This document shows positions 1,164 through 47,454 of a stretch of 47,454 bases of DNA, in pieces (the first letter of the stretch is position 1; each line of letters begins with the position of its first letter). The stretch spans positions 1 through 47,454 of the forward strand of contig JAFUAY010000045.1 in the NCBI GenBank assembly GCA_017460515.1, read 5' to 3'. The position numbers and the translations under genes were made by a program. Under the pieces are notes generated by a model. The model was not told where the DNA came from and did no database searches. It saw only the letters and a program-made list of their open reading frames with translations. This stretch comes from Prevotella sp. (GTDB lineage: Bacteria; Bacteroidota; Bacteroidia; Bacteroidales; Bacteroidaceae).

Positions 1164-4100
1164 CTATTTGTTAACCTTCAGAATCTTCTTGTAATAGGTC
1201 TGTCCGTCAGCAACGACCGTCGCAACATAGACACCCTCAGAGAGTGTTCCAGTAGGAATGACAGCACCTGTACCCAGATTGTCGGCTATCAGCACTACGC
1301 GTCCACTCATGTTGGTAAGTGACATCTTGCTGATTGTACGACCACCTGCGCTTACAGTGATATGGTCACTGAATACTGGTGTCACCTCCAGTTCATCGTA
1401 TAGCTCCTTGATGCCCGTAGCCTCCTTGCCTATATGCAGGGCGTAAGGCAGGCACCATGAACCTACGTTGTCAACATGGAACTGCACGCTCTCAGTGATG
1501 TCGAAGAAGCGTCCGTCAGTGAGGTTGGCGGCAATGAAAGTAATATCCTCCTTGTTGTCGCCCACGATGTTCATGAGCACCTTATCATCCTTCCAGATAC
1601 CAATGCCGCGGCATTCGGTTCCTGCGAAGGCACCAACGACGAACTCATCAGCCTTGACTGGCGCACCGTCCTGATAGAGCTGTGCGGTCATTGGCATCAG
1701 GTTAGCGTAAGCATACTTATCGCAAGCCCAAGGTGCATCATTCAGTGAGATGTGCTTGTCGATACGGCTGGCAGCAACAGACACGATGGTGGTGTTGAAG
1801 ATAATCTCATCAGCCTTGCCCGACTTGAACAGATAGCCCTTGCCAGGTTTCAGGCCTTCGAGTCCTCCCGTCCACTTACCATCGACATACTCAGCAAAGC
1901 CATCCTGTCCGAGCACATAGTCACCTTCCATTGGTGTGAAGAAGGCAAATGCCTCGTCGAGCGTCATGGTCTGACTTATAGGATAGCCTATCCAGTTCCA
2001 TCCGTTAGTCACGTCGATAGACTTACTCAAAGCGTTGTACTCATAACCCGTCAGCACGTTTTCCTTGGTTGCAAGTACCTTAACCTTGTAGGCCTGAGCA
2101 GGCTGCAATTCCTTCAGCGTACCCATCAGTCCATAGACTGGATCGTTGATGGCCTCCTCAGTCTGGCTAACGATGAGCTCGGCAGTAGGAGCAAACTCCT
2201 TCACAGCTACTGGCTGCTCAAAGTTATGAGACACCCAAGTCCAACCCTCATTGAAATTATAACCCATCGTGGTCTTCTTCAGTTTGAAGGTAAACTCAGC
2301 GGTCTCACTGGCTTCCAGGTCAACGCCCTTGGCCTGTGCCTTGATGGTCACATTATCATCAGCGATGACGATAGGATGTTCGGCATCATACTTGATGATG
2401 GCAGGATTATTGTCATCACATGGGCAAGAGCCGTCGAGCGTATAGTAGATCTCAGCGTTCTCAGTCTCTGATGTCAGACGGATCTGAGTACCACGATAGA
2501 CCTCTGTACCAGACACGCGCGATGCACGCGGTGCCAAGGTGAACAGCTCGTTGGCATCCTTCACGTTGACAATCATCTGTCCCTGAATCTCAGTATCCTC
2601 AACCTTGAACGAGATGACCGTCTGGCCAGGCAGCTCGCCTGATACCTCAACCTCTGCCTCGCCATTCTCGTCGAGTGTCAGGGTCTCAGCGTTCACCTTT
2701 GCAATGGTATTGGAGAGGGCCTTCACCCTAACCACCTTACCCTTGGAAGCGTCGGCAGGCAGGGCAGCGATGGTGCGGATACGGGTGGTGCCATAGCCCA
2801 CGTTGACCAGGGAGTCGACAGCCATATTGCGAACGCGCGGCAGCACGTCGAACGACTGACTATAGTCTTCCTCCATCGGAACGCCAGCATAGCTCTCCAC
2901 GCTCTTCGCGATGGTCAGCTTCACCTCATCGGTAGTCAGCAGCTCCTGCTCAGCGGGCATCTGGAAGAGAACCTTTGATGCGTAGGTCTGGGCATTGTCC
3001 TTGCTCACCTGTTCCTCGTTGAGCAGCTTGATGCTACCCTCAACAGCCACACCGTTGCGGGTCAGCTTGATATTGTCGGTAGTCAGCGTAGCAGGATCCA
3101 TGTACTTGTCGAACTCAATCTCGACGCCCTCGCTGTAGGCCTTACCGCTCTTCACGACAGGCTGTACCATCTGCGTCATGGCGATGTTGACGTCAAGCTG
3201 TGGAGGAGGCACGGGCAACCACTCAGAATAGGTAGTCTGATAACCTTCCTTCTCGAACTTCACACGCCAGAGTCCCTGTGGAACGTCCCACTGGTACATA
3301 CCGTTCTCGTCAGTGAACAGCGGGTTCTCCTGAGCATATTCCTCAGCGTTCCAGAGTACGATGTTCTCGTGCAGGTCGCCATACATATCCTCTACAACCT
3401 CCTTGTAGTAACAAGAGGCAGTGACACCCTGTACACGATTTGAAGAAACAGCCTCATAGACGAAGCCAGAGGGGTCCATCACGTGTTCAACAGGATTGAA
3501 CGGCCAGTCAATCTCGTCCTTCTTCTTCTTCTCCTCCTCATTCTTGTAGCACTCCAGCTTCTTGATGCCCTTCTTGATCTTGTTCTTTGCAAACGAGAGA
3601 CCTGCATCGACAGCGAAGCTGCCAAGACCTACAAGGACTTTCTGTGCTATACCCCATGCAGAGGCAGTGAGCGATACGCCTGCGGTAGCCACCGAACCGA
3701 CGACACCGCCAACAATCTCGGCATCACTCGTGAACTCATTGACCAGCTCTACGGTAGCCTTGGCGATGACTGCTATTAACAGTGCGTAGGTAGATTTGCG
3801 CCAGAAGGATGCATTCGATTCGTCTTGCGGACATGGATCTGGAATAGAGTAATAGAGCGTACCAATGTCCTTGATGTCGTTAGCCAGCGAGATAGCAAAT
3901 GATACATACTTCACAACGGGTAGTGCTTTCAGGGCATATCTGAAGATCTTCTTAGAGAGCCACTGTGCAGCCTTTGCCTGCAGCAGGTTCTTCTTGAGCA
4001 TTACCTTCTCGCCAAGCCATGACAAGCGCTCGTACCATCTGCCATGTGTCTTGGCATAGTTGATGAAGTAGTTGGCTCTGTTCATACGCATCTGCAGGGA

Positions 4101-7100
4101 AAGAACGGCATATTCAAGATTCTTTTCTGAAGCCAGAATCTTGGCATTCAGACCCAGTGTCCACTTGTTGACATCCTTGATGAAGTCGTTGATAGCAGCC
4201 ACTGCATTGGCTACCTTCTCGGCCACATCGCCAATCGAGCGGTTGGTGCGTGCGCCAGCCGAAACGGCCATCTGGATGGTGACACGAACGCCTTTGACAA
4301 AGTCAACATACTCGGTGGTCTGTTCACCCATCAGTACATAGATGGCGCTTCCGTCGACACACTGCATCTCCATGTAGCCTGCTTCCTTCAGACCTTCAGG
4401 TGTGAGTCCTGTGCAGTCAGCCATAGTGAACTTCGTGCCATTGGGCAGCGTGAACTCACCATGCTCGTTGAATGCGAGCCACTGACTCATGTCGTTCAGA
4501 TAGGCTGCAGTGGTTGCATCCTCTGCCTGCAGCGCTTCCAGCTCCTGATTCATGAAGGTAGCGAACTCCTCATCGCTCATCGCATTCAGAACAGCATCCA
4601 GGCTGTCGGTATTCAGCGGTGCATCGATGTCATCACCAAACAGGGCATTGATCTTCTCGCATTTGTCGTCGAGTGCAGCAATCTCCTCATCGGTAGTGGC
4701 CTCAGTGATGGTCACTCCGTCGAAGGTTTCTGCGATATCAGTAACGATATCCTGATACTCCTTCAGGTATCCCTCCATCTCAGCGGTAGCCTCTTCCAGC
4801 TGGCGCTTGTCGAAGTAGCGTTCTGCAGCACTTGCGTAGTCAACCATGACGTTGGTAGGCAGTGCGTCAGAATTATACTTCGCTGTAGCCACCCAGCACT
4901 TACGCTTTCCGTCGAAGACGGGAGTCAGCGTAGACACCGTGTTGTTCGAGAGCAGCACATGCAGAAGGACGTTGGTCACCATCGTCGTATCGTTGTTGGT
5001 GAAGTCAATCAGGAAGGTGAAGTCAGGATAGCTGGGCCAATACCAGTAGGGCTTAGCCTTCTTGCCAGGATTGGTGAAGTCGAACTCGGTGACATACTCA
5101 CAGAGGTCGAGCGTCGAGGCGGGATGAGCCACGTTGATCATGGTCACCTTGGTAGGCTCGATAGCATTCTGGTCATAGAGCAGTTCCTGCACGTCTGACT
5201 GCAGCTCCAGTCCGTTCTCCGTCACAATCTTCGCATAGATGCTGTGCGTTGACAGGTTGATAGGATCTTTCAGCTCAATCTCCGTGTTCCAGAAACCATT
5301 GGCCAGTGCGGTGGCATGACCTACAGAGACGCCATTGTCGAAGATCTCCACTTCCGACTTGCCGATTGCTGTACCCAGAACAGGCACAGTGGTCTTGGCT
5401 ACCACTGAAGGAACAGTGATGCTCAGGTTGCTGACAGTGAACACGACGTTGCCGATGGGCTGGCGCATGGTCTTGCCATCCACATTGAACTCGATGCTGG
5501 CACTGGGAGCGTAGAGGCCTCCGATGGTGGGAATCAAGCAGAATCGTACCTGGTCAGTGATGTTCTCGAGTGCTACTGTCAGACGGTTCTGCTCCAGTGT
5601 GTAGCTGCTGATGGCATTGCCTGCCATCACGGAGTTGTCGACAAATGAGCAGTTCTGTGGCAACTCAAACACCATCTTCACGTCGCTGATCCTACCTTGG
5701 TAGACGGGCTTGAAGTCAATCTGTCCACGCAGGGTGAGGTACTGTCCGGCAGTGACCTGGCTCTTGTTGACACTGAAGCGCGTGTTGCTGCCAGTGTAGT
5801 ACAGCTTCGTCTCGTCGAGGAAGGGCACCAGCTGGTTGGCAATCAGAGCAGTCTCGCCACTCTTCACCGTCACCTGGTTCTTCAGGAAGTCGACACCTTC
5901 CTTCAGGCCTGCCTCACCAAACTGGCTCAGCATACCAATGGCGTTGAACAGCGCACTGCTGCCCATCGTCACCAGGGTGTAGGTGCCGTCGGTGAGCTCG
6001 TTGATGACCAGTTCGGTATTGGTATAGTCGAACTTGCTGACAAACTGTCCGTTGCCATCGTAGAGCATGCCCACGATACTATTGTTGTCTGTCTGGCGGA
6101 ACGATGCCTGGATACCACCCAACTGCTTGATGGGGAAGGTAATCTGGGCATTGTCGTTAGCGTCGACTGTGCAGGTGGCGGTAACGGGCATGAAGCGATC
6201 CTTCTTGCTGGTGGCAGTGATGGTGAACACTGTGCCCTCTGCATGCTCGTCGAGCATCACGATCTGCGGATACTGAACGTTCAGGTCCATGATGACGTTG
6301 CCCTCAGCATCCTGTACGGTATAGGCTACGTTGGCATAGTCGTCGTAGTAGCTCTTCGTCTCGCCGCCCACCTCTGTATAGGTGAGTGACAGCTGGATGG
6401 TGGTGCCGTTGATGTCCTTCAGCTCAAAGGTAGGAACGGTATTGTCTTCCAGATTGTCGAGTGTGTCTATCTTCACCGTCTGACTGATATAGTCAGTGGC
6501 TGAGGCAGTCACCTCAGTGGGCATGTCGAGCACATCCAGTTGCCATTTGCCTTCGATATCGGTCTTGGCGCTGTAGGCCTTCGAATACTGTCCGTGAACG
6601 GTCTGGGTGACCGTGAGCTGTGCGCCCTTCAGTGTTGCAGAGGTCTTCACGTCCTTCACCACGCCCTTGATCTGTCGCTTGGCGATAGGTGTCAGGGTGT
6701 AGATCAGGTCGTTGGATGCAGCCACCTCATTGATGGAATCCTGTGGCAGCATGTACTGCAAAGCCAACTGCTGGGGCAGAGTGATGCGATAGACCACCTT
6801 GTTGCCTTCCAGCTGGTTTGCCACCTGATTGCCGCGTGTAAGATAAGTACCTTTATAATCAGTCCAGGTGATGCTGGTCTGATCAGTCACATCGTCGCCT
6901 TGAGGTGTCTTCACTGCGAGGGTCACCGTCTTGGGCTCCTTCAGCGACTCGAACGTGACAGCCACGTTCTTGTCAACAATCTCAACATTGTTCATCTCGC
7001 CCAGAATGTCACCAGCTCTGTTCTTCAGGTATATATTATAAGTGGTGTTCTGGATGAGGCTGTTGAACGTGTAGGTCACACGATTGGTGATGACATAGCG

Positions 7101-11300: not shown

Positions 11301-12142
11301 TCGAAGGTAACGGTAAACGTGCCGAATCCCTCACGATTGCCAGTGTTATTGGTAATGGTCAGTTCATTAGTGCTACCCGTCCAGTGATTCTCCTCCATAG
11401 ATCCCTCGCTGGCTTCACCATAGATATTGTAATTATTTATGTTGCTGAACTGGATGTCAACAATATCCATATCAGAGAGGAAGGTCATTGAGTTACCGCT
11501 ATAGAAATAGATGGAACCATACCTACTATAAGGCCGATTATTATCCGCATTCAGATTCTTAAATACCAACTTCACATTATTAAAATACAAAGTATCAGTT
11601 TCGGTGAGGTATTTCGTTGTTCCCGAATATGGTATGGTGTACTCCTCAACAATATACATATTGTGGGCCTGTACGCTTTCTATCACTTCGCTCAGCGCAT
11701 CGATAGCTGCAAAGATAGCCGTAGCGTCTTCACTCTCCAGCAGGGCTGAAGCCTCTTCAATAGCAGCTGTCAGCAGTTGCTTACCCTTCTCAGTAACCAT
11801 GCTGTTCTGCTTCAGAATGTTGGCAGACTGTATAGCCTGACTTAGCGCTGTTGCTGCTTTCTGAGCATCCATACCCCAATAGAAGAGTTTGAAGTTCTTC
11901 CAGTAGGCAGTATAACCATCGTCAGTTGAAGATTTCTTCACGCCCAGGCGAACCTTAGCGCTATCATTGGATACATAGAGATATACTGAATTGTTGTACA
12001 AGTTGTTCATGAATGCAACGTAGGCACCATTTGATCCTGAAGGATAGTAGAGGCATTCTTCGTAGCAGTATTCGTTGTAATCAAACCAATATCCCAAGTC
12101 GCTCCACTGTCTGCGCATTTTCATCTGTAATACGCTCTTCAT
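8378..12142 (-). CDS. BspA-like leucine-rich surface protein, 3' part of a frameshifted gene
   Basis: This 1,254-codon frame is the downstream part of a longer gene. Its nominal ATG at 12142 is not convincing: residues 1-17 are an out-of-frame reading of sequence that fits the upstream frame, and sensible protein starts at about GYWFDYNEY. It completes a jelly-roll carbohydrate-binding-like domain (to about residue 110), then has helical linkers (about 110-450), then a BspA-type LRR_5 region (about 455-745) with repeated AFYGC / AFYNC / AFRNC motifs and SIKLPAGL-like strands. A beta-rich C-terminal region follows and the protein ends GIYVKKGQKAVVK, the short basic tail seen on many secreted Prevotella proteins. 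Such LRR proteins mediate binding to host or bacterial surfaces. It lies 53 bases upstream of the 2,386-residue gene. Confidence 0.8.
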   Translation of the reverse strand: MKSVLQMKMRRQWSDLGYWFDYNEYCYEECLYYPSGSNGAYVAFMNNLYNNSVYLYVSNDSAKVRLGVKKSSTDDGYTAYWKNFKLFYWGMDAQKAATALSQAIQSANILKQNSMVTEKGKQLLTAAIEEASALLESEDATAIFAAIDALSEVIESVQAHNMYIVEEYTIPYSGTTKYLTETDTLYFNNVKLVFKNLNADNNRPYSRYGSIYFYSGNSMTFLSDMDIVDIQFSNINNYNIYGEASEGSMEENHWTGSTNELTITNNTGNREGFGTFTVTFDNPTDEQLVERLTEQVTLAEAAIAALTHENVYGKAELTQKVTEAKALAQAETKDIPQIKAYVKALKADRTTLQALDAAYTAIENALTELASAGQDNQYCDPAKQEAATTFIAATQTAIAQGAYKTEDIAGVQEQINWHIAQLQMVYLTIELADAGTLGDEVLMRVTNFTDVQGLRLSGKVDDTDMERIKGQMTNLQEIDLSGIDLKKMPYQQFYNRTMLTSIKLPAGLEEIGGYAFYGCANLSSFELPATLKTIGEYAFYNCSKFTELNVPEGVTSIGSYAFQCSTGYSYVYDENGNYKYDENGDRIRIYYGSNLKKVTLPSTLTNLGTCAFRNCISLEQVNIPAGLTYINNEVFEGCSALKSITIPATIKQINYEAFYGSGLATVELPEGLNVINSSAFGDCDSLKAITLPSSVNNITNPFSGCDNLESIIVKAIAPPYANDNSIMGGMEQRCTLYVPELSLAAYKQTDRWSAFAPNIFGLNIMPENIIITDEYRLLWPDTVSFDYKPNVELTKMDRGDNYWGDSRYRYAAVTVTGNATLSAKEFSMYFDYYYKRDYNSSTNSRFATLINNGKIRTDNNILKLHLRADEWNFIALPFDVKVSDIVNVNNTQFVIRGYDVVKRANAQMDETWYDMKGDDILEAGKGYIWQAAHTTYTNDDGWQNDNYDVEFDVQALQTVNKNNMFRNGTVEIELEENLSEFPQNRSWNFIGNPFPCYFDTRAMDITAPFTVWRDGYNYQAYSPVDDSYILAPGEAFFIQRPLDQASITFLREGRQMNPQVRDITYFAGTRQSDMTAKRSVFNLTIDGQEQNDQTRFVINENAALTYEMDKDASKFMDGAVKSIQLYTVEEGLRYAINERPFAKGEVALGMKVMKDGNYTIKLDTKADAEVYLVDLLTGETTLMGDAGYTFQAKAGTLDNRFVIRLSGIDLTGISTVGNAQQQDENYYDLQGRCVEKNQLKNGIYVKKGQKAVVK

Positions 12143-26194: not shown

Positions 26195-26207
26195 TCTCCG
26201 GATGAAA

Positions 26208-26239
26208 GATGAAAAATGAGAGATGAAAGATATGATTAG
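26208..26239 (+). repeat. A-rich leader element downstream of the receptor gene
   Basis: A 32-base GATGAAAAATGAGAG-type sequence that recurs with one mismatch on the minus strand at 26679-26648, and more divergently at 26376-26408. In both close copies it sits directly before the GAGCGC hairpin, in the sense direction of the upstream gene. Confidence 0.85.
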
Positions 26240-26242
26240 TTT

Positions 26243-26274
26243 AAGAGCGCTCCTGCTGATGTGGGGGCGCTCTT
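26243..26274 (+). terminator. Hairpin downstream of the Oar-like receptor
   Basis: AAGAGCGC at 26243-26250 pairs with GCGCTCTT at 26267-26274, extended by TCC/GGG, followed by AGGTTT. The T-tract is short, so termination efficiency is uncertain. A matching hairpin on the other strand serves lpxA. Confidence 0.6.
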
Positions 26275-26325
26275 AGGTTTGGTTCCGCTTTAAGCGAGGG
26301 CAGGGGCTGACATTGTGCAGATTTT

Positions 26326-26408: not shown

Positions 26409-26420
26409 CTTTGTGTGCTC

Positions 26421-26574
26421 CCCCAGCGTTTGACTGAAACGCTCCATGCAAACAACTGAAACGCGCGTAGCGAAGCCTAGGAACGCTCATAGCAAAGCCT
26501 AAGAACGCTCCTTGTAAACATCATGATTACGCCGCGCAAACACCATGATTACGCCGCGCAAACACCATGATTAC
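26421..26574 (-). repeat. 22-nt-register repeat array downstream of lpxA
   Basis: Read on the minus strand, seven consecutive units of exactly 22 bases start at 26574, 26552, 26530, 26508, 26486, 26464 and 26442. Cores of 17 bases are followed by 5-base spacers: two copies of GTAATCATGGTGTTTGC, then GTAATCATGATGTTTAC, GCGTTCTTAGGCTTTGC, GCGTTCCTAGGCTTCGC, GCGTTTCAGTTGTTTGC and GCGTTTCAGTCAAACGC (a perfect 6-5-6 hairpin). Two looser units extend toward lpxA, to about 26618. A period of 22 cannot encode a repeated peptide in one frame. Confidence 0.8.
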
Positions 26575-26609
26575 CAAGAGCGAAAGCCAATTCACTGGGA
26601 GCGAAACCT

Positions 26610-26643
26610 AAGAGCGCCCCTGCTGAATGGCAGGAGCGCTCTT
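26610..26643 (-). terminator. Hairpin downstream of lpxA
   Basis: Minus-strand AAGAGCGC pairs with GCGCTCTT, with an inner CCTGC/GCAGG extension, followed by AGGTTT. It is the counterpart of the plus-strand hairpin after the receptor gene and is preceded by the same A-rich leader. Confidence 0.6.
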
Positions 26644-26647
26644 GAGT

Positions 26648-26679
26648 CTAATCATATCTGTCATCTCTCATTTTTCATC
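26648..26679 (-). repeat. A-rich leader element downstream of lpxA
   Basis: Minus-strand copy of the 32-base leader found at 26208-26239. It lies between the lpxA stop and the lpxA-side hairpin. Confidence 0.85.
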
Positions 26680-26686
26680 TGGAACA

Positions 26687-43449: not shown

Positions 43450-44286
43450 ATGTCAAAAGTAGATCTTATAAATGACAACTGGGTAGACCTTGTCTTTGAA
43501 AACAAGAACCAGGCCTACGGTGCATATACGCTTCGCAAGGAGACAGGTAAACGTAACGTAATGGCTCTCACAGTCGTTATCTCTACCATTATCGCTGTCT
43601 TCGTCATCGCTTACCTGAACATTCAGATTCAGAATGCCATGAAGAGCGATGTAGCCATCGAGACCGATGTGGAGCTGTCAAAGCTGGCACAGAAGAAAGA
43701 GGCTAAGGTTGAGCGTAAAGAGCCCATCCAGAAAGTGGAGGTTGAGCAGAAAGTCGTAGAGAAGGTAAAGAGCTCTGTGAAGTTTACTGCTCCTGAGATT
43801 AAGAAGGACGACGAGGTAAAGCCTGAGGACGAAATCAAGTCACAGGATGATCTCGCCAAGACCAACACTGCTATCGGTACTTTCGACGTGAAAGGTAACG
43901 ACGAGGCTGAAGGTGAAGTGCTGAAGGCTAAGGAGGTTATCGCTGACGAAAAGCCGAAGGAAGAGGAGACCAAGGTCTTCGACGTGGTAGAACAGATGCC
44001 TGAGTTCCCTGGTGGACAGGCAGCCTTGTTGAAGTGGATTAGCGATCATATCAAATATCCCGCTATCGCTGAGGAGAACGGCATCCAGGGACGCGTAGTT
44101 TGTACGTTCGTCGTTGAGCGTGACGGTTCAGTAACCGATGTGCAGGTAGCACGTTCTATTGACCCCTCGCTCGATAAGGAAGCTGTACGCGTGCTGAAGC
44201 AGATGCCTCGTTGGAATCCTGGTAAGCAGAACGGTTCAAGCGTACGTGTGAAGTACACCGTGCCTGTAACCTTCCGTCTCCAGTAA
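43450..44286 (+). CDS. tonB: TonB energy-transducing protein
   Basis: Spans the periplasm and passes energy from ExbB-ExbD to TonB-dependent receptors. 278 aa. A cytoplasmic N-terminus (FENKNQAYGAYTLRK, typical of Bacteroidetes TonB) precedes TM1 (about 38-57), then a Lys/Glu-rich periplasmic spacer (about 75-175) in place of the usual Pro-rich one. The C-terminal TonB domain (about 180-278) has EFPGGQAALLKWI, IQGRVVCTFVVERDG and MPRWNPGKQNG. Fourth gene of the cluster and a candidate partner of the Oar-like receptor at 22.9 kb. Confidence 0.94.
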   Translation: MSKVDLINDNWVDLVFENKNQAYGAYTLRKETGKRNVMALTVVISTIIAVFVIAYLNIQIQNAMKSDVAIETDVELSKLAQKKEAKVERKEPIQKVEVEQKVVEKVKSSVKFTAPEIKKDDEVKPEDEIKSQDDLAKTNTAIGTFDVKGNDEAEGEVLKAKEVIADEKPKEEETKVFDVVEQMPEFPGGQAALLKWISDHIKYPAIAEENGIQGRVVCTFVVERDGSVTDVQVARSIDPSLDKEAVRVLKQMPRWNPGKQNGSSVRVKYTVPVTFRLQ

Positions 44287-44335
44287 TCCGCATTCTGGTA
44301 ATTGTTTTCAGATTGTAAAACACTGAAAAAGAAGT

Positions 44336-45316
44336 ATGAATAGAACTCAATTCAACAACATCGTTGGATTATCACTTATTTTAGGCTTGTTCCTCGCTTG
44401 TGGGAACAAGCCTAAAACTGAATCAGACTATGACTATGAGGCTGCTGCCTCTGTCTTCATGGCCGACGAAAGCTTCCACCCCATCCTCGATGAGGAACTG
44501 GATGTCTTTACCAACGTGTTTAACCGCCATGCCATTGCTCAAGACACGCTCCACGCTGTCTATACCAGTGAGACCGAGGCCATCGAGAAACTGATGAAGA
44601 ACGAGACCTGGCTGGCATTCACCACACGTAAGTTCACTGACAAAGAGATGGAGAACCTGAAAGCTCGTTCCTTCATCCCGCGTATCATGCCGATAGCCTT
44701 CGACGGATTGGCCATCATTGTCAATAATTCGAATCCCGATACGTGTATTTCCGTCAAGGACTTTGCCCGCATCCTGAAGGGCGAAGTGTCTGAATGGAAA
44801 GAGCTTTACCCGAACTCAAAGTTGGGACAGATTGACGTTGTCTTTGATAACCCCAAGAGCAGTACCGTTCGTTTCTGTGTCGACTCCATCCTGGGTGGCA
44901 CGCCTATCCTGAGTCAGGAGAGTGAGAATATCGGTGCAGTGCTGAAAAGCAGCGAGGTGGTCGAGTATGTTGAGAAAACACCGAACGCCCTGGGCATCAT
45001 CGGCTCCAACTGGCTCAACGACAAACGTGATACTACGAATATCACCTTTAAGAAGAATATTACGGTCATGAAGGTATCCCGACTGGATTCTGCAACTGTC
45101 AGAAACAGTTTCCGTCCCTATCAGGCCTATATATATAATGGCAACTATCCGTTGGTGCGCACCATCTATGCCCTGCTCACTGAGCCCCGTACAGGCATGC
45201 CTACGCGCTTTGCCAACTTCTGCAGCCTGCCGCAGGGACAGAAGATCATCTTCAGCGCAGGATTGCTGCCGAATACCCCCAACATGAACGTCCGTAACGT
45301 TAATGTTGTTAAATAA
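44336..45316 (+). CDS. PstS-like substrate-binding lipoprotein
   Basis: Periplasmic-binding-protein-like lipoprotein, 326 aa. The lipobox LFLAC puts the lipid on Cys22. The fold resembles phosphate-binding PstS (FTTRKFTDKEM, ARILKGEVSEW, SSTVRFCVDSILGG, ALGIIGSNWL). No PstC/PstA/PstB permease genes are adjacent, and the gene sits inside an ExbBD-TonB cluster, so a role in phosphate ABC uptake is not shown; a sensing or accessory role near TonB is equally possible. It lies 49 bases after tonB and about 100 bases before the TPR gene. Confidence 0.88.
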   Translation: MNRTQFNNIVGLSLILGLFLACGNKPKTESDYDYEAAASVFMADESFHPILDEELDVFTNVFNRHAIAQDTLHAVYTSETEAIEKLMKNETWLAFTTRKFTDKEMENLKARSFIPRIMPIAFDGLAIIVNNSNPDTCISVKDFARILKGEVSEWKELYPNSKLGQIDVVFDNPKSSTVRFCVDSILGGTPILSQESENIGAVLKSSEVVEYVEKTPNALGIIGSNWLNDKRDTTNITFKKNITVMKVSRLDSATVRNSFRPYQAYIYNGNYPLVRTIYALLTEPRTGMPTRFANFCSLPQGQKIIFSAGLLPNTPNMNVRNVNVVK

Positions 45317-45420
45317 GGATTGACGCGGGGCACCTCGATGCGTCAGATGACTAAAGGACTTTCAGTCCTGTCTGAACGAACAAGTATTGAAATTAGTAAT
45401 CACCAAAACATATATTGATT

Positions 45421-46839
45421 ATGAAAACAATTAAATATCTAATGATTGGTGCGCTGACATTCGGATTCAGCGCAATCGGTATGGCTCAGGAAGAGTCACC
45501 CGTTGAAGCTGTGAAGGCATTGGTGAAGAGCAATGATCCCGATGCTGAGAAGCAGATCAAGTCTATCTACAAGAAGAATAAGAAGAATGGTGAGGTAATA
45601 ACCGGAATCGCTCGTGTCTACTACGAAGAGAAGGATACGGCCAATGCCCGTTACTATGCTGAGCTGGCTACCAAGTTGAACTACGGTCCTGCCTATATCG
45701 TCCTGGGTGATATCGCTGCCCTGGCTGATGATGGTGGTGGCGCAGCCCGTATGTACGACCAGGCTGTCTACTTCGCTCCGAAGGATCCTTCTGCTTACTA
45801 TAAGTATGCAATGGTCTATCGTAAGGTCCATCTGGATGCCGCCATCGGTAAGCTCGATGACCTGGGCGTTCAGCGTCCCGACCTCGTTGAGAACGGACAG
45901 GTGAATATCCTCAAGGGTCGTATCTATGACCTTGCCAATAAGGTAGAGCAGGCTGCTGAGACCTACAACAAGGTGCCCCTCTCACAGATGGAGGACCGCG
46001 ACGTGGTGAGCGCTGCACGTGCCAACTATCTGCTCGGTAACTATGAGAAGAGTCAGGAAATCATCGATCATGGACTGAAAGGCTCACCTCGTAAGTTCAC
46101 CTACAACCAACTGGGCATGTTCAACCACACACAGCTGAAGAACTACGACAAGGCTCTTGAGTATGCTGACCGCATGATCAATCATTCTGACTCTGTGAAG
46201 ATGAATCCTGAGATCTATGGTGTGTATGCCAAGGCGCTGAACGGTGCCAAGAAGCATCAGGAGGCTATCGATGTCTATAAGAAGACCCTCGAACTGGAGT
46301 TTGACTCTCAGGACAAGAAGGCAGGTGTCATCAAGGACCTGGCTGATGCCTATAAGGGACTTGACGACTATGAGAATGCCGTGACCTACTACGACCTCTT
46401 CCTCAAGACCGTTTCTCGTGCCACACTTACCGACTATGCCGACCTGGGCCGCCTCTATGTTCAGTATGCCAATACCCTGGAGGGTGATGCCAAGATGGAG
46501 AAGCTGCAAAAGGCCGACCAGATCTATGCCGACCTGGCTGAGAAGAATGCCGATGCCAAGGAGTATTCATTGTTCTGGCGCGCTCGCGTAGGTACCATGA
46601 TGGACCCCGATGCCTCTCAGGGCAAGGCACAGCCTTTCTATGAGGAGCTCGTAAACATCATCAGCGAGAAAGCCGAGAAGGACAATGCCGACAAGGCTCG
46701 TCTGAAGGAAGGCGGTAACTTCCTCATGGTCTACTATCTGAAGATCAAGGACGATGTGCCCACATCAAAGCAGTTCGCTGAGAAGGTGATTGCCATCGAT
46801 CCGGAGAACGAGACTGCCAAGCAGATCCTCGCCCTGTAA
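45421..46839 (+). CDS. Secreted tetratricopeptide-repeat protein
   Basis: Periplasmic or surface TPR protein, 472 aa. The frame can start at TTG 45415, but the ATG two codons later (MKTIKYLMIGALTFGF, cleavage near GMAQ) is preferred. From about residue 45 to the end it is alpha-helical TPR repeats with patterns such as ARYYAELATKLNYGPAYI, ALEYADRMINHSDS and ENAVTYYDLFLKTV. TPR proteins scaffold complexes; its fixed place after the ExbBD-TonB-PstS genes suggests it works with them. Directly after the stop begins a 22-nt-register repeat array. Confidence 0.88.
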   Translation: MKTIKYLMIGALTFGFSAIGMAQEESPVEAVKALVKSNDPDAEKQIKSIYKKNKKNGEVITGIARVYYEEKDTANARYYAELATKLNYGPAYIVLGDIAALADDGGGAARMYDQAVYFAPKDPSAYYKYAMVYRKVHLDAAIGKLDDLGVQRPDLVENGQVNILKGRIYDLANKVEQAAETYNKVPLSQMEDRDVVSAARANYLLGNYEKSQEIIDHGLKGSPRKFTYNQLGMFNHTQLKNYDKALEYADRMINHSDSVKMNPEIYGVYAKALNGAKKHQEAIDVYKKTLELEFDSQDKKAGVIKDLADAYKGLDDYENAVTYYDLFLKTVSRATLTDYADLGRLYVQYANTLEGDAKMEKLQKADQIYADLAEKNADAKEYSLFWRARVGTMMDPDASQGKAQPFYEELVNIISEKAEKDNADKARLKEGGNFLMVYYLKIKDDVPTSKQFAEKVIAIDPENETAKQILAL

Positions 46840-46846
46840 CCCCCAC

Positions 46847-46863
46847 GTTTACATATTGTAAAC
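46847..46863 (+). other. Small perfect inverted repeat after the TPR gene
   Basis: GTTTAC / GTAAAC with a 5-base loop, seven bases beyond the TPR stop. It shows the same 6-5-6 geometry as some array cores. Confidence 0.6.
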
Positions 46864-46870
46864 AGCATAC

Positions 46871-46905
46871 TTAGCCCTCGTAATCCTGTTGATTGCGAGG
46901 GCTAA
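46871..46905 (+). terminator. Hairpin terminator candidate for the ExbB-TonB-TPR cluster
   Basis: TTAGCCCTCG at 46871-46880 pairs perfectly over 10 bp with CGAGGGCTAA at 46896-46905. Only CTCTATT follows rather than a T-run, so Rho-independent termination is uncertain. The arms belong to the 22-nt register of the array. Confidence 0.5.
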
Positions 46906-47223
46906 CTCTATTGATTACGAGTCGAAAGTCTATTGATTACATGCTGCAATCACTAAGCTTTTACGGTGTAATCACTAAGCAATTACGATGTAATCACTAA
47001 GCAATTACGATGTAATCACTAAGCAATTGAGTCGTAATCACTAAGTAATTGAGTCGTAATCACTAAGCAATTGCATCTGAGCGAAGCCTAATTTTGCTCA
47101 TAGCGTTCTTAGGTTTCGCCCTTAGCGTTCCTAGGCTTTGCTCCCAGAAAAGAGGTGATTGCGAAAAAGATGCTACCATATACCGTAACAGGGCTAAAAC
47201 GCCGATGTACAAAGGCTTTGAGG

Positions 47224-47265
47224 GACGGTAGGTGTTGTCATAACAGGTACCTGACACCTACCGTC
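47224..47265 (-). repeat. 42-bp element, copy 1 (inverted)
   Basis: Its reverse complement reads GACGGTAGGTGT, CAGGTACCTG, TTATGACAAC and an ACCTACCGTC end. The same order (TTACGACAACA in the last part) recurs on the plus strand at 47422-47454, cut by the window edge. Confidence 0.7.
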
Positions 47266-47278
47266 GGCCCCGTTTTTT
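47224..47278 (+). terminator. 12-bp stem hairpin with T-tract
   Basis: GACGGTAGGTGT at 47224-47235 pairs perfectly with ACACCTACCGTC at 47254-47265. The loop holds the palindrome CAGGTACCTG, and GGCCCCGTTTTTT follows. It looks like an intrinsic terminator but is also one end of an inverted element. Confidence 0.6.
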
Positions 47279-47411
47279 CCTATTCCATATTAGTCACAGC
47301 ATCAAGGTACAGCTGGGACAAGCCATGAAGGAACTGGGCTACGACCACACTATGCGCAGCAATGTTCCCTTCTACAAAATCATTCCTTTGAAGACAACCC
47401 AATCCGCCTGA
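47277..47411 (+). pseudogene. Short C-terminal coding remnant (possibly VapE/DUF3874-like)
   Basis: About 44 open codons ending in TGA at 47409-47411 read like a real protein tail: HSIKVQLGQAMKELGYDH followed by TMRSNVPFYKIIPLK. No start or upstream coding sequence exists; directly before it are the terminator-like hairpin and T-tract. The pattern recalls the C-terminal winged-helix-like end of virulence-associated E / DUF3874 primase-helicase proteins of Bacteroidales mobile elements, but that match is from memory and weak. It lies between inverted 42-bp elements. Confidence 0.4.
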
Positions 47412-47454
47412 CGGTAGGTGTGACGGTAGGTGTCAGGTACCTGTTACGACAACA
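47410..47454 (+). repeat. Tandem 12-mers plus 42-bp element, copy 2 (truncated by window)
   Basis: GACGGTAGGTGT occurs twice in tandem (47410-47421 and 47422-47433), followed by CAGGTACCTG and TTACGACAACA. The second 12-mer begins the truncated copy of the element inverted at 47224-47265. Confidence 0.75.

What the first reader, a model, noticed from the sequence alone, without database searches (positions are those of the whole stretch)
46836..47143. Array kept in exact 22-nt register directly behind the TPR gene
About 14 steps of exactly 22 bases run from the TPR stop codon with no indel, although unit sequence changes along the array from GTAATCACTAAGCAATT-type cores to GCGTTCYTAGGYTTYGC-type cores. 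Fixed spacing with changing sequence suggests the period itself is under selection (about two DNA turns, or an RNA-level unit). 22 is not a multiple of three, and there are no unique spacers, so it is neither a coding repeat nor a CRISPR. Left and right half-units look interchangeable.
Basis: partly seen in the sequence, partly recalled or inferred. Interest (0 to 1): 0.75.

Follow-up and report, generated by a model that had tools for sequence, protein, structure and literature searches.

The report
Fixed-length 22-bp bacterial satellite arrays
Prevotella and related bacteria carry many short non-coding DNA arrays whose repeat length stays at 22 bases (about two turns of the helix) while the letters mostly differ from species to species, which suggests that spacing and mirror symmetry, more than sequence, are what is kept.

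Summary
The array is real: about 13 units in one exact 22-bp register at 46858-47143, in three blocks of different sequence. It is not unique. A second array lies at 26412-26615, and a 447-kb sample of this genome holds 20 lag-22 clusters (lag 23: 1; shuffle: 0). In 52 stretches (986 kb) of other Prevotella, 22 is again the commonest intergenic lag (37 clusters), with mostly species-specific sequence: 61 of 215 array pairs are related within genomes, 28 of 1676 between.

Shared are period and dyad symmetry: 38 of 62 arrays reach p<=0.05, against 5 of 52 at control periods. The array of the finding itself does not. Half-sites share one vocabulary but do not covary as base pairs, which favours a DNA-level element over RNA hairpins.

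The kind is known: constant-size, variable-sequence tandem repeats (Subirana and Messeguer). Dyad architecture, independent halves and different sequences at one locus look new. Best reading: a spacing- and symmetry-reading dimeric nucleoid-type protein binds them (0.4); the main rival is a neutral, mutation-driven satellite.

The parts
46858..47143 (.). 22-bp satellite array, about 13 units in one register
   Evidence: lag-22 self-match and adjacent-unit matches; TRF 0% indels
46858..46945 (.). block of GATTAC / TTAGC-type units; includes the perfect 10-bp inverted repeat TTAGCCCTCG (46871-46880) / CGAGGGCTAA (46896-46905)
   Evidence: sequence; related blocks at L015, L019, L029, L034
46946..47077 (.). 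block of GTAATCACTAAGCAATT-type units, each two inverted half-sites of the form YARTYRCT
   Evidence: 17 pattern hits in the genome with up to 2 mismatches, 0 in the reversed-pattern control
47078..47143 (.). block of GCGTTCYTAGGYTTYGC-type units (first unit weak)
   Evidence: related blocks at window 26469-26509, L011, L016, L029, L034, L038
26412..26615 (.). second 22-bp array of the window, between convergent genes (TonB-dependent-receptor-like outer-membrane protein and a protein with hexapeptide and UDP-GlcNAc acyltransferase domains)
   Evidence: dyad p=0.003
45421..46839 (+). TPR-repeat protein gene upstream of the array
   Evidence: Pfam TPR families

Best explanation
The locus is one of many dispersed non-coding satellite arrays of this genome (about 85 to 100 by extrapolation from the sample). 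Shown: 22-bp period, intergenic place, mostly species-specific sequence, dyad symmetry in a majority of arrays, and, in the two unit families examined, halves that do not covary as base pairs. Inferred: the arrays act as double-stranded DNA. A dimeric, sequence-tolerant DNA-binding protein (nucleoid-associated type) sits on one dyad per two helical turns, so that neighbours lie on about the same face and can bind side by side, organising or insulating gene ends. Because spacing and symmetry matter more than letters, the sequence drifts and is homogenised within a genome by duplication and conversion of units, and so turns over quickly between species.
For: Period 22 is the commonest intergenic lag in own and other Prevotella (19 and 37 clusters) and stands out in indel-tolerant TRF (61 arrays of period 22, 8 of 20, 13 of 21, 6 of 23; short periods such as 7 with 56 and 8 with 44 are also common). 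Dyads exceed column-permuted arrays in 38 of 62 and dinucleotide-preserving unit shuffles in 31 of 62; in other genera 5 of 13; at control periods 14, 16, 18, 24, 28, 30 in 1 of 18, 0 of 11, 1 of 6, 1 of 8, 1 of 6, 1 of 3. Halves share a vocabulary without pairing covariation; in G024 none of the 30 strongest couplings is a marked distant pairing. GT and AC mismatches are alike over the 38 arrays with a dyad (171 and 167). In Prevotella A/T is enriched 5-6 bp and G/C 8-9 bp from the axis, and predicted curvature is modestly raised (mean z -0.85, 39 of 62 in that direction).
Against: No protein is identified. 24 of 62 arrays show no significant dyad, among them the array of the finding itself (p 0.79; its A block alone p 0.13). 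Several unrelated unit classes coexist in one genome, which a sequence-reading protein would not allow. GT/AC imbalance varies between arrays more than chance (chi2 65.2, 38 df, p 0.004), though repeated units are not independent. The A/T-G/C profile did not replicate in 13 arrays of other genera, and dyads reach p<=0.05 in only 2 of 7 arrays of 21 bp and 0 of 2 of 23 bp. Most TPR loci lack an array. Periods 21 and 23 in relatives show that 22 is not universal.
Confidence: 0.4

Rival explanations
1. Neutral or selfish satellite: a replication or repair process in these bacteria duplicates DNA in steps of 22 bp, perhaps helped by dyads that fold on single strands; the arrays have no function and sit where they do least harm.
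For: Identical neighbouring units (46968 and 46990); variable presence at one locus; in co-directional gaps arrays lie nearer the upstream stop in 22 of 31 (counted by hand); convergent gaps 14 of 57 against 58 of 335 background gaps; four G024 arrays sit beside a gene of the same size, as if copied with it; one-base slips near array ends.
Against: I know of no process that fixes the unit at 22; neighbouring unit lengths are not similarly common. Adjacent units that differ at 44% of positions still hold register, with the caveat that arrays were selected by in-phase match.
Confidence: 0.33
2. RNA-level hairpin array in 3' untranslated RNA, for example protecting mRNA ends or binding an RNA-binding protein.
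For: Dyads of 5-7 bp could form hairpins; arrays lean to gene 3' ends (22 of 31 in co-directional gaps).
Against: No compensatory covariation between halves (Watson-Crick pairs observed/expected 16/23.7, 32/33.7, 19/23.8, 19/20.4 in 49 units). Sense-strand GT 81 against AC 106, p 0.08. 12 of 57 arrays with both neighbours called are in divergent gaps. No Rfam match above gathering score in 44000-47454.
Confidence: 0.12
3. A miniature mobile element whose body is a 22-bp minisatellite, like BrickBuilt of Porphyromonas gingivalis; transposition spreads it.
For: The array at 26412-26615 lies inside an inverted repeat aligned over 83 nt at 84%. Some flanks are shared: L011 2236-2338 with L030 (81%, 104 nt), L011 2017-2083 with L019 (90%, 68 nt), and the right edge of the array of the finding (47080-47188) with L016 (70%, 109 nt).
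Against: No inverted repeat encloses 46858-47143. I saw no leader or tail common to all arrays, but the listing was cut and I made no systematic test. A Y1 transposase is absent from own genome and from array-bearing G003, G012 and G017; other transposases were not tested.
Confidence: 0.1
4. Operators of a few ordinary sequence-specific regulators.
For: Half-site form with conserved core positions in the A-type units.
Against: Many loci and several unrelated unit classes in one genome; lean to gene ends. Whether the neighbouring genes share a function was not tested.
Confidence: 0.05

Closest known systems
Constant-size, variable-sequence tandem repeats of bacteria (Subirana and Messeguer 2020, J Bacteriol, cited but not held; 2021, PMC8161180)
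   Same: Non-coding, dispersed, species-specific families, one fixed unit length (the 20-21 nt class corresponds to about two helical turns), several families per genome; same two hypotheses (protein polymerising on DNA, small RNA)
   Different: Reported as 20-21 or 52 nt in Bacillus and 20-23 nt in many groups; here 22 in Prevotella, with many diverged units, dyad-symmetric with interchangeable halves, and different sequences at one orthologous place. The main text of PMC8161180 has no occurrence of Prevotella, Bacteroid- or palindrom-
BrickBuilt minisatellite MITE of Porphyromonas gingivalis (PMC4596501)
   Same: Order Bacteroidales (recalled), intergenic, imperfect tandem units without spacers, about two turns
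   Different: 23 nt; 19 elements of one family, 11 of them with both leader and tail, and terminal inverted repeats; indels 0-6%
REP/BIME and REPIN elements with RAYT
   Same: Dispersed palindromic units in alternating orientation between genes (recalled)
   Different: Longer, fixed sequence, transposase-linked (recalled); Y1 transposase absent from own genome
Eukaryotic centromeric satellites
   Same: Analogy only: monomer length kept, sequence turns over fast (recalled)
   Different: No kinetochore; dispersed short arrays

Membership tests
Constant-size, variable-sequence bacterial tandem repeats | One dominant unit length per lineage | tested here: met
   lag and TRF spectra; other genera mix 21 and 22
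Constant-size, variable-sequence bacterial tandem repeats | Unit not a multiple of three and non-coding | tested here: met
   22; 56 of 65 clusters intergenic by simple ORF calls; the 9 others, in called ORFs, I judged spurious calls by eye
Constant-size, variable-sequence bacterial tandem repeats | Sequence families specific to a species, several per genome | tested here: met
   61 of 215 within-genome against 28 of 1676 between-genome related pairs; 21 of 62 arrays have at least one between-genome relative; classes in own genome
BrickBuilt MITE | 23-nt unit | tested here: not met
   period 22
BrickBuilt MITE | Leader and tail with terminal inverted repeats | tested here: inconclusive
   no inverted repeat encloses 46858-47143; the second array of the window has one, and some flanks are shared between loci; not tested systematically
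CRISPR array | Unique spacers between identical repeats | tested here: not met
   units abut without spacers
REP/RAYT | Y1 transposase in the genome | tested here: not met
   no PF01797 match in own genome (65% complete) nor in array-bearing G003, G012, G017 (94 to 99% complete); 22 of 30 genomes searched do have one
Structured RNA family of Rfam | Covariance model match above gathering score | tested here: not met
   44000-47454 searched; the only match on the array is mir-306, 34.9 bits against 52, taken as chance
Protein-binding nucleoid array | Bound protein in vivo or in vitro | not testable with these tools
   needs pull-down or ChIP

The most novel reading that the evidence does not exclude
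Across Prevotella and other genera of its family, chromosomes carry many satellite arrays in which length (two helical turns) and dyad symmetry are selected and base sequence is free, read by a sequence-tolerant dimeric nucleoid protein: a bacterial counterpart of fast-evolving structural satellites, with lineage-specific period (22 here, 21 and 23 in some relatives).
Probability: 0.3. Interest if true: 0.85.

Novelty: new variant of a known kind. Interest (0 to 1): 0.6.

Why it matters
Why some bacteria keep tandem repeats of one exact length with free sequence is an open puzzle in the papers that describe it. Finding it in a large, partly genetically tractable group, with a measurable symmetry rule and many natural variants, makes the question directly testable by respacing arrays and pulling down proteins. 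If a protein is found, it would be a nucleoid organiser that reads spacing rather than sequence.

Tried and rejected
RNA hairpin reading: rejected as main reading because halves do not covary and G.U mismatches are not favoured. My first half-site table counted both strands and so was symmetric by construction; I replaced it with one-strand counts. My first dyad test (17 arrays, mean z 1.3) was weaker than the later one over 62 arrays.

Conserved place behind the TPR gene: weak. Of 41 other loci examined, 4 are clear (L041, L047, L054, L082), L080 is weak (0.53), L045 is CT-rich with better matches at other lags, 35 show none. The 41 include one genome twice (L046 and L059, judged from equal contig length), L040 and L047 hold only 127 and 365 nt of downstream DNA, and the position used for L071 is uncertain.

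A universal A/T-G/C profile: holds in own and other Prevotella, fails in other genera. RAYT: rejected. Exact two-unit pattern in named genomes: 0 matches.

G024 strand test: 29 matches, first look capped at 40 scored candidates. Two of the 29 are to sequence beside the array, not to units, and four are near-identical copies. Raw counts are 4 same and 8 opposite strand; without the one flank match among them and with the four copies counted once, by hand, 3 and 5. Too few to carry weight.

Dropped rows: L046 (overlaps L091), L051 (duplicate of L042), and three CT-rich clusters of L045 were left out of the 62 arrays; the cluster counts still include those of L045. The control periods left out the window.

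Papers: PMC8161180 (abstract, sections 3.3 and 4, references, tables, passages), PMC4596501 (abstract, section 5, passages), PMC6749651 (abstract and one passage), PMC8625621, PMC9879509 and PMC5771137 (passages only). The J Bacteriol 2020 paper is not held, so its list of genomes could already include Prevotella or Bacteroides. The novelty claim rests on the searches in open-access full texts.

Full report
What is there. From about 46858 to 47143, behind a TPR-protein gene, the window holds about 13 units of 22 bp with no indel. They form three blocks. Neighbouring units inside a block match at 8, 15, 15; 18, 22, 18, 21, 19; and 10, 17 of 22 positions; across the two block borders they match at 9 and 7. 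Lag 22 gives 0.70 self-match over 46880-47145. The next best stretch of the window, 26412-26615, is another 22-bp array with partly related units, between two convergent genes.

It is a genome-wide family. In the window plus twenty 20-kb stretches (447,454 bp), clusters with at least 56% self-match over 66 nt number 20 at lag 22, 2 at lag 20, 10 at lag 21, 1 at lag 23, and none at lag 22 in one Markov shuffle. Some arrays give two clusters. Lag 21 goes with 7-bp repeats (10 clusters at lag 14, 4 each at 28 and 35). BLAST with the array gives 56 match rows in the genome, itself included and several rows at some loci, with 40 candidates scored. Other loci align with the window array in register across block borders, so the change of unit sequence along the array is a composite that recurs.

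It is a lineage-wide period with changing letters. In 52 stretches (985,875 bp) of other Prevotella, intergenic clusters number 37 at lag 22, 11 at 21, 6 at 23, 27 and 12 at the multiples 44 and 66; the next commonest other lag is 8 with 20. TRF, which tolerates indels, finds 61 intergenic arrays of period 22 with at least 2.8 copies against 8 of 20, 13 of 21 and 6 of 23; short periods (7: 56, 8: 44, 11: 34) are common too. At least one 22-bp array was found in 26 of 41 genomes sampled. In 20 stretches of other genera of the same family (389 kb), lag 22 has 13 clusters, lag 21 has 16 (some look coding), lag 20 has 3, lag 23 none. In 20 stretches of other families of the order (283 kb), lag 22 has 2, lag 23 has 3 and lag 24 has 4. 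Sequences are mostly species-specific: 61 of 215 within-genome array pairs are similar, 28 of 1676 between genomes, and 21 of 62 arrays have some relative in another genome. In G024, a single-contig genome, one query array gives 29 matches along the chromosome; two of them are to sequence beside the array, and four are near-identical copies.

The same place, different letters. The closest TPR relative (L039, 72% identity) has no array behind the gene. The next (G023, 69%) has a 22-bp array there with visibly different sequence. So do L041, L047 and L082. Of the other 37 of 41 loci, L080 is weak, L045 is CT-rich and 35 show none.

Architecture. Dyad symmetry exceeds that of column-permuted arrays in 38 of 62 arrays (12 of 20 own, 26 of 42 other; mean z about 2.0 in each) and that of dinucleotide-preserving unit shuffles in 31 of 62 (mean z 1.86). 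Arrays of other genera, not used before, give 5 of 13 (mean z 1.86). Intergenic arrays of control periods give 1 of 18, 0 of 11, 1 of 6, 1 of 8, 1 of 6 and 1 of 3. The 21-bp arrays I picked as non-coding-looking give 2 of 7 and the 23-bp arrays 0 of 2. The array of the finding, being a composite, is not significant as a whole (p 0.79) nor by block (p 0.40, 0.13, 0.55). In Prevotella arrays A/T is enriched 5-6 bp from the axis (z 7.7 and 4.4) and G/C at 8-9 bp (z -5.6 and -5.3), similarly in own and other genomes, but this did not replicate in the 13 arrays of other genera.

DNA or RNA. If hairpins mattered, the two halves should covary as base pairs and tolerate G.U on the transcribed strand. 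In 49 A-type units from 12 loci the halves share a vocabulary (39 of 49; permuted mean 0.28), yet Watson-Crick pairs are at or below expectation at the four variable pairs tested. In 142 distinct unit pairs of G024 the strongest couplings are between neighbouring bases; none of the 30 strongest is a marked distant pairing. Over the 38 arrays with a dyad, GT and AC mismatches are 171 and 167, and on the sense strand in the contexts where it is known 81 and 106 (p 0.08); the balance varies between arrays more than chance (p 0.004), which repeated units inflate. In G024 array strand shows no clear link to gene strand (4 same, 8 opposite, copies included). A double-stranded DNA function fits better.

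Place. Of 62 arrays, 31 lie between co-directional, 14 between convergent and 12 between divergent genes, 5 at stretch ends; background gaps of 150 nt or more, array gaps included, are 194, 58 and 83. In the co-directional gaps 22 of 31 lie nearer the upstream stop (counted by hand, two-sided p about 0.03 by hand). In G024 the 29 matches lie in 12 co-directional, 10 convergent and 7 divergent gaps. Gene calls are simple ORF calls.

Register. Inside arrays, position-matrix hits fall 363 times at phase 0, twice at +-1 and ten times at 10-11; within 180 nt outside they fall 9 times at phase 0, 11 times at +-1 and 17 times elsewhere. Slips of one base therefore happen. Adjacent units differ at 44% of 8128 positions. 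Selection of arrays by in-phase match makes the inside count optimistic.

Known or new. Subirana and Messeguer described bacterial tandem repeats of constant size and variable sequence and proposed a protein that polymerises on DNA, or small RNAs (PMC8161180). BrickBuilt is a 23-nt minisatellite within a MITE of P. gingivalis (PMC4596501). The present arrays meet the features tested of the first and differ from the second in unit length; shared ends remain open. Dyad architecture, independent half-sites, block composites and replacement of sequence at one locus I found in none of the passages read; the 2020 paper itself could not be read. I therefore call it a new variant of a known kind.

Mechanism. 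Shown: period, place, symmetry in a majority of arrays, sequence turnover, halves that do not covary. Inferred: a dimeric, sequence-tolerant protein binding one dyad per two turns. The main rival is a mutational engine without function; strain data and pull-downs would decide.

Noticed in passing
window 26207-26286 and 26598-26680: The second array is enclosed by an inverted repeat (83 aligned nt, 84%) made of 7-bp repeats (AGATGAA-like) and a GC-rich hairpin; similar 7-bp repeats adjoin several other arrays of the genome.
   Followed up: partly
window 47224-47454: Inverted repeat pair GACGGTAGGTGT...ACACCTACCGTC, with 33-nt arms of 97%, round a short stretch at the contig end; probably a repeated element that broke the assembly.
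   Followed up: no
L156 5429-5582, 6464-6620, 19192-19477; L158 9815-9971: Other genera of the family carry 21-bp arrays, in L156 beside a 22-bp one.
   Followed up: partly
L116 8206-8329 and 9605-9789: 23-bp arrays (CACAATCTTGTCAATTTTTATCT-like) in a genome of another family of the order, the period of BrickBuilt.
   Followed up: partly
L045 about 4063-4388 and 11478-11805: Long CT-rich irregular repeat tracts, with a GCTGCGGTTTTCCCGCAGC hairpin.
   Followed up: no
G024 contig 1 at 448582, 2739158, 2797577, 3440613; also 1209128 and 2116193: Near-identical arrays: the first four lie beside a gene of 694 codons (three also beside one of 622), so arrays can travel with duplicated or mobile segments.
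   Followed up: no
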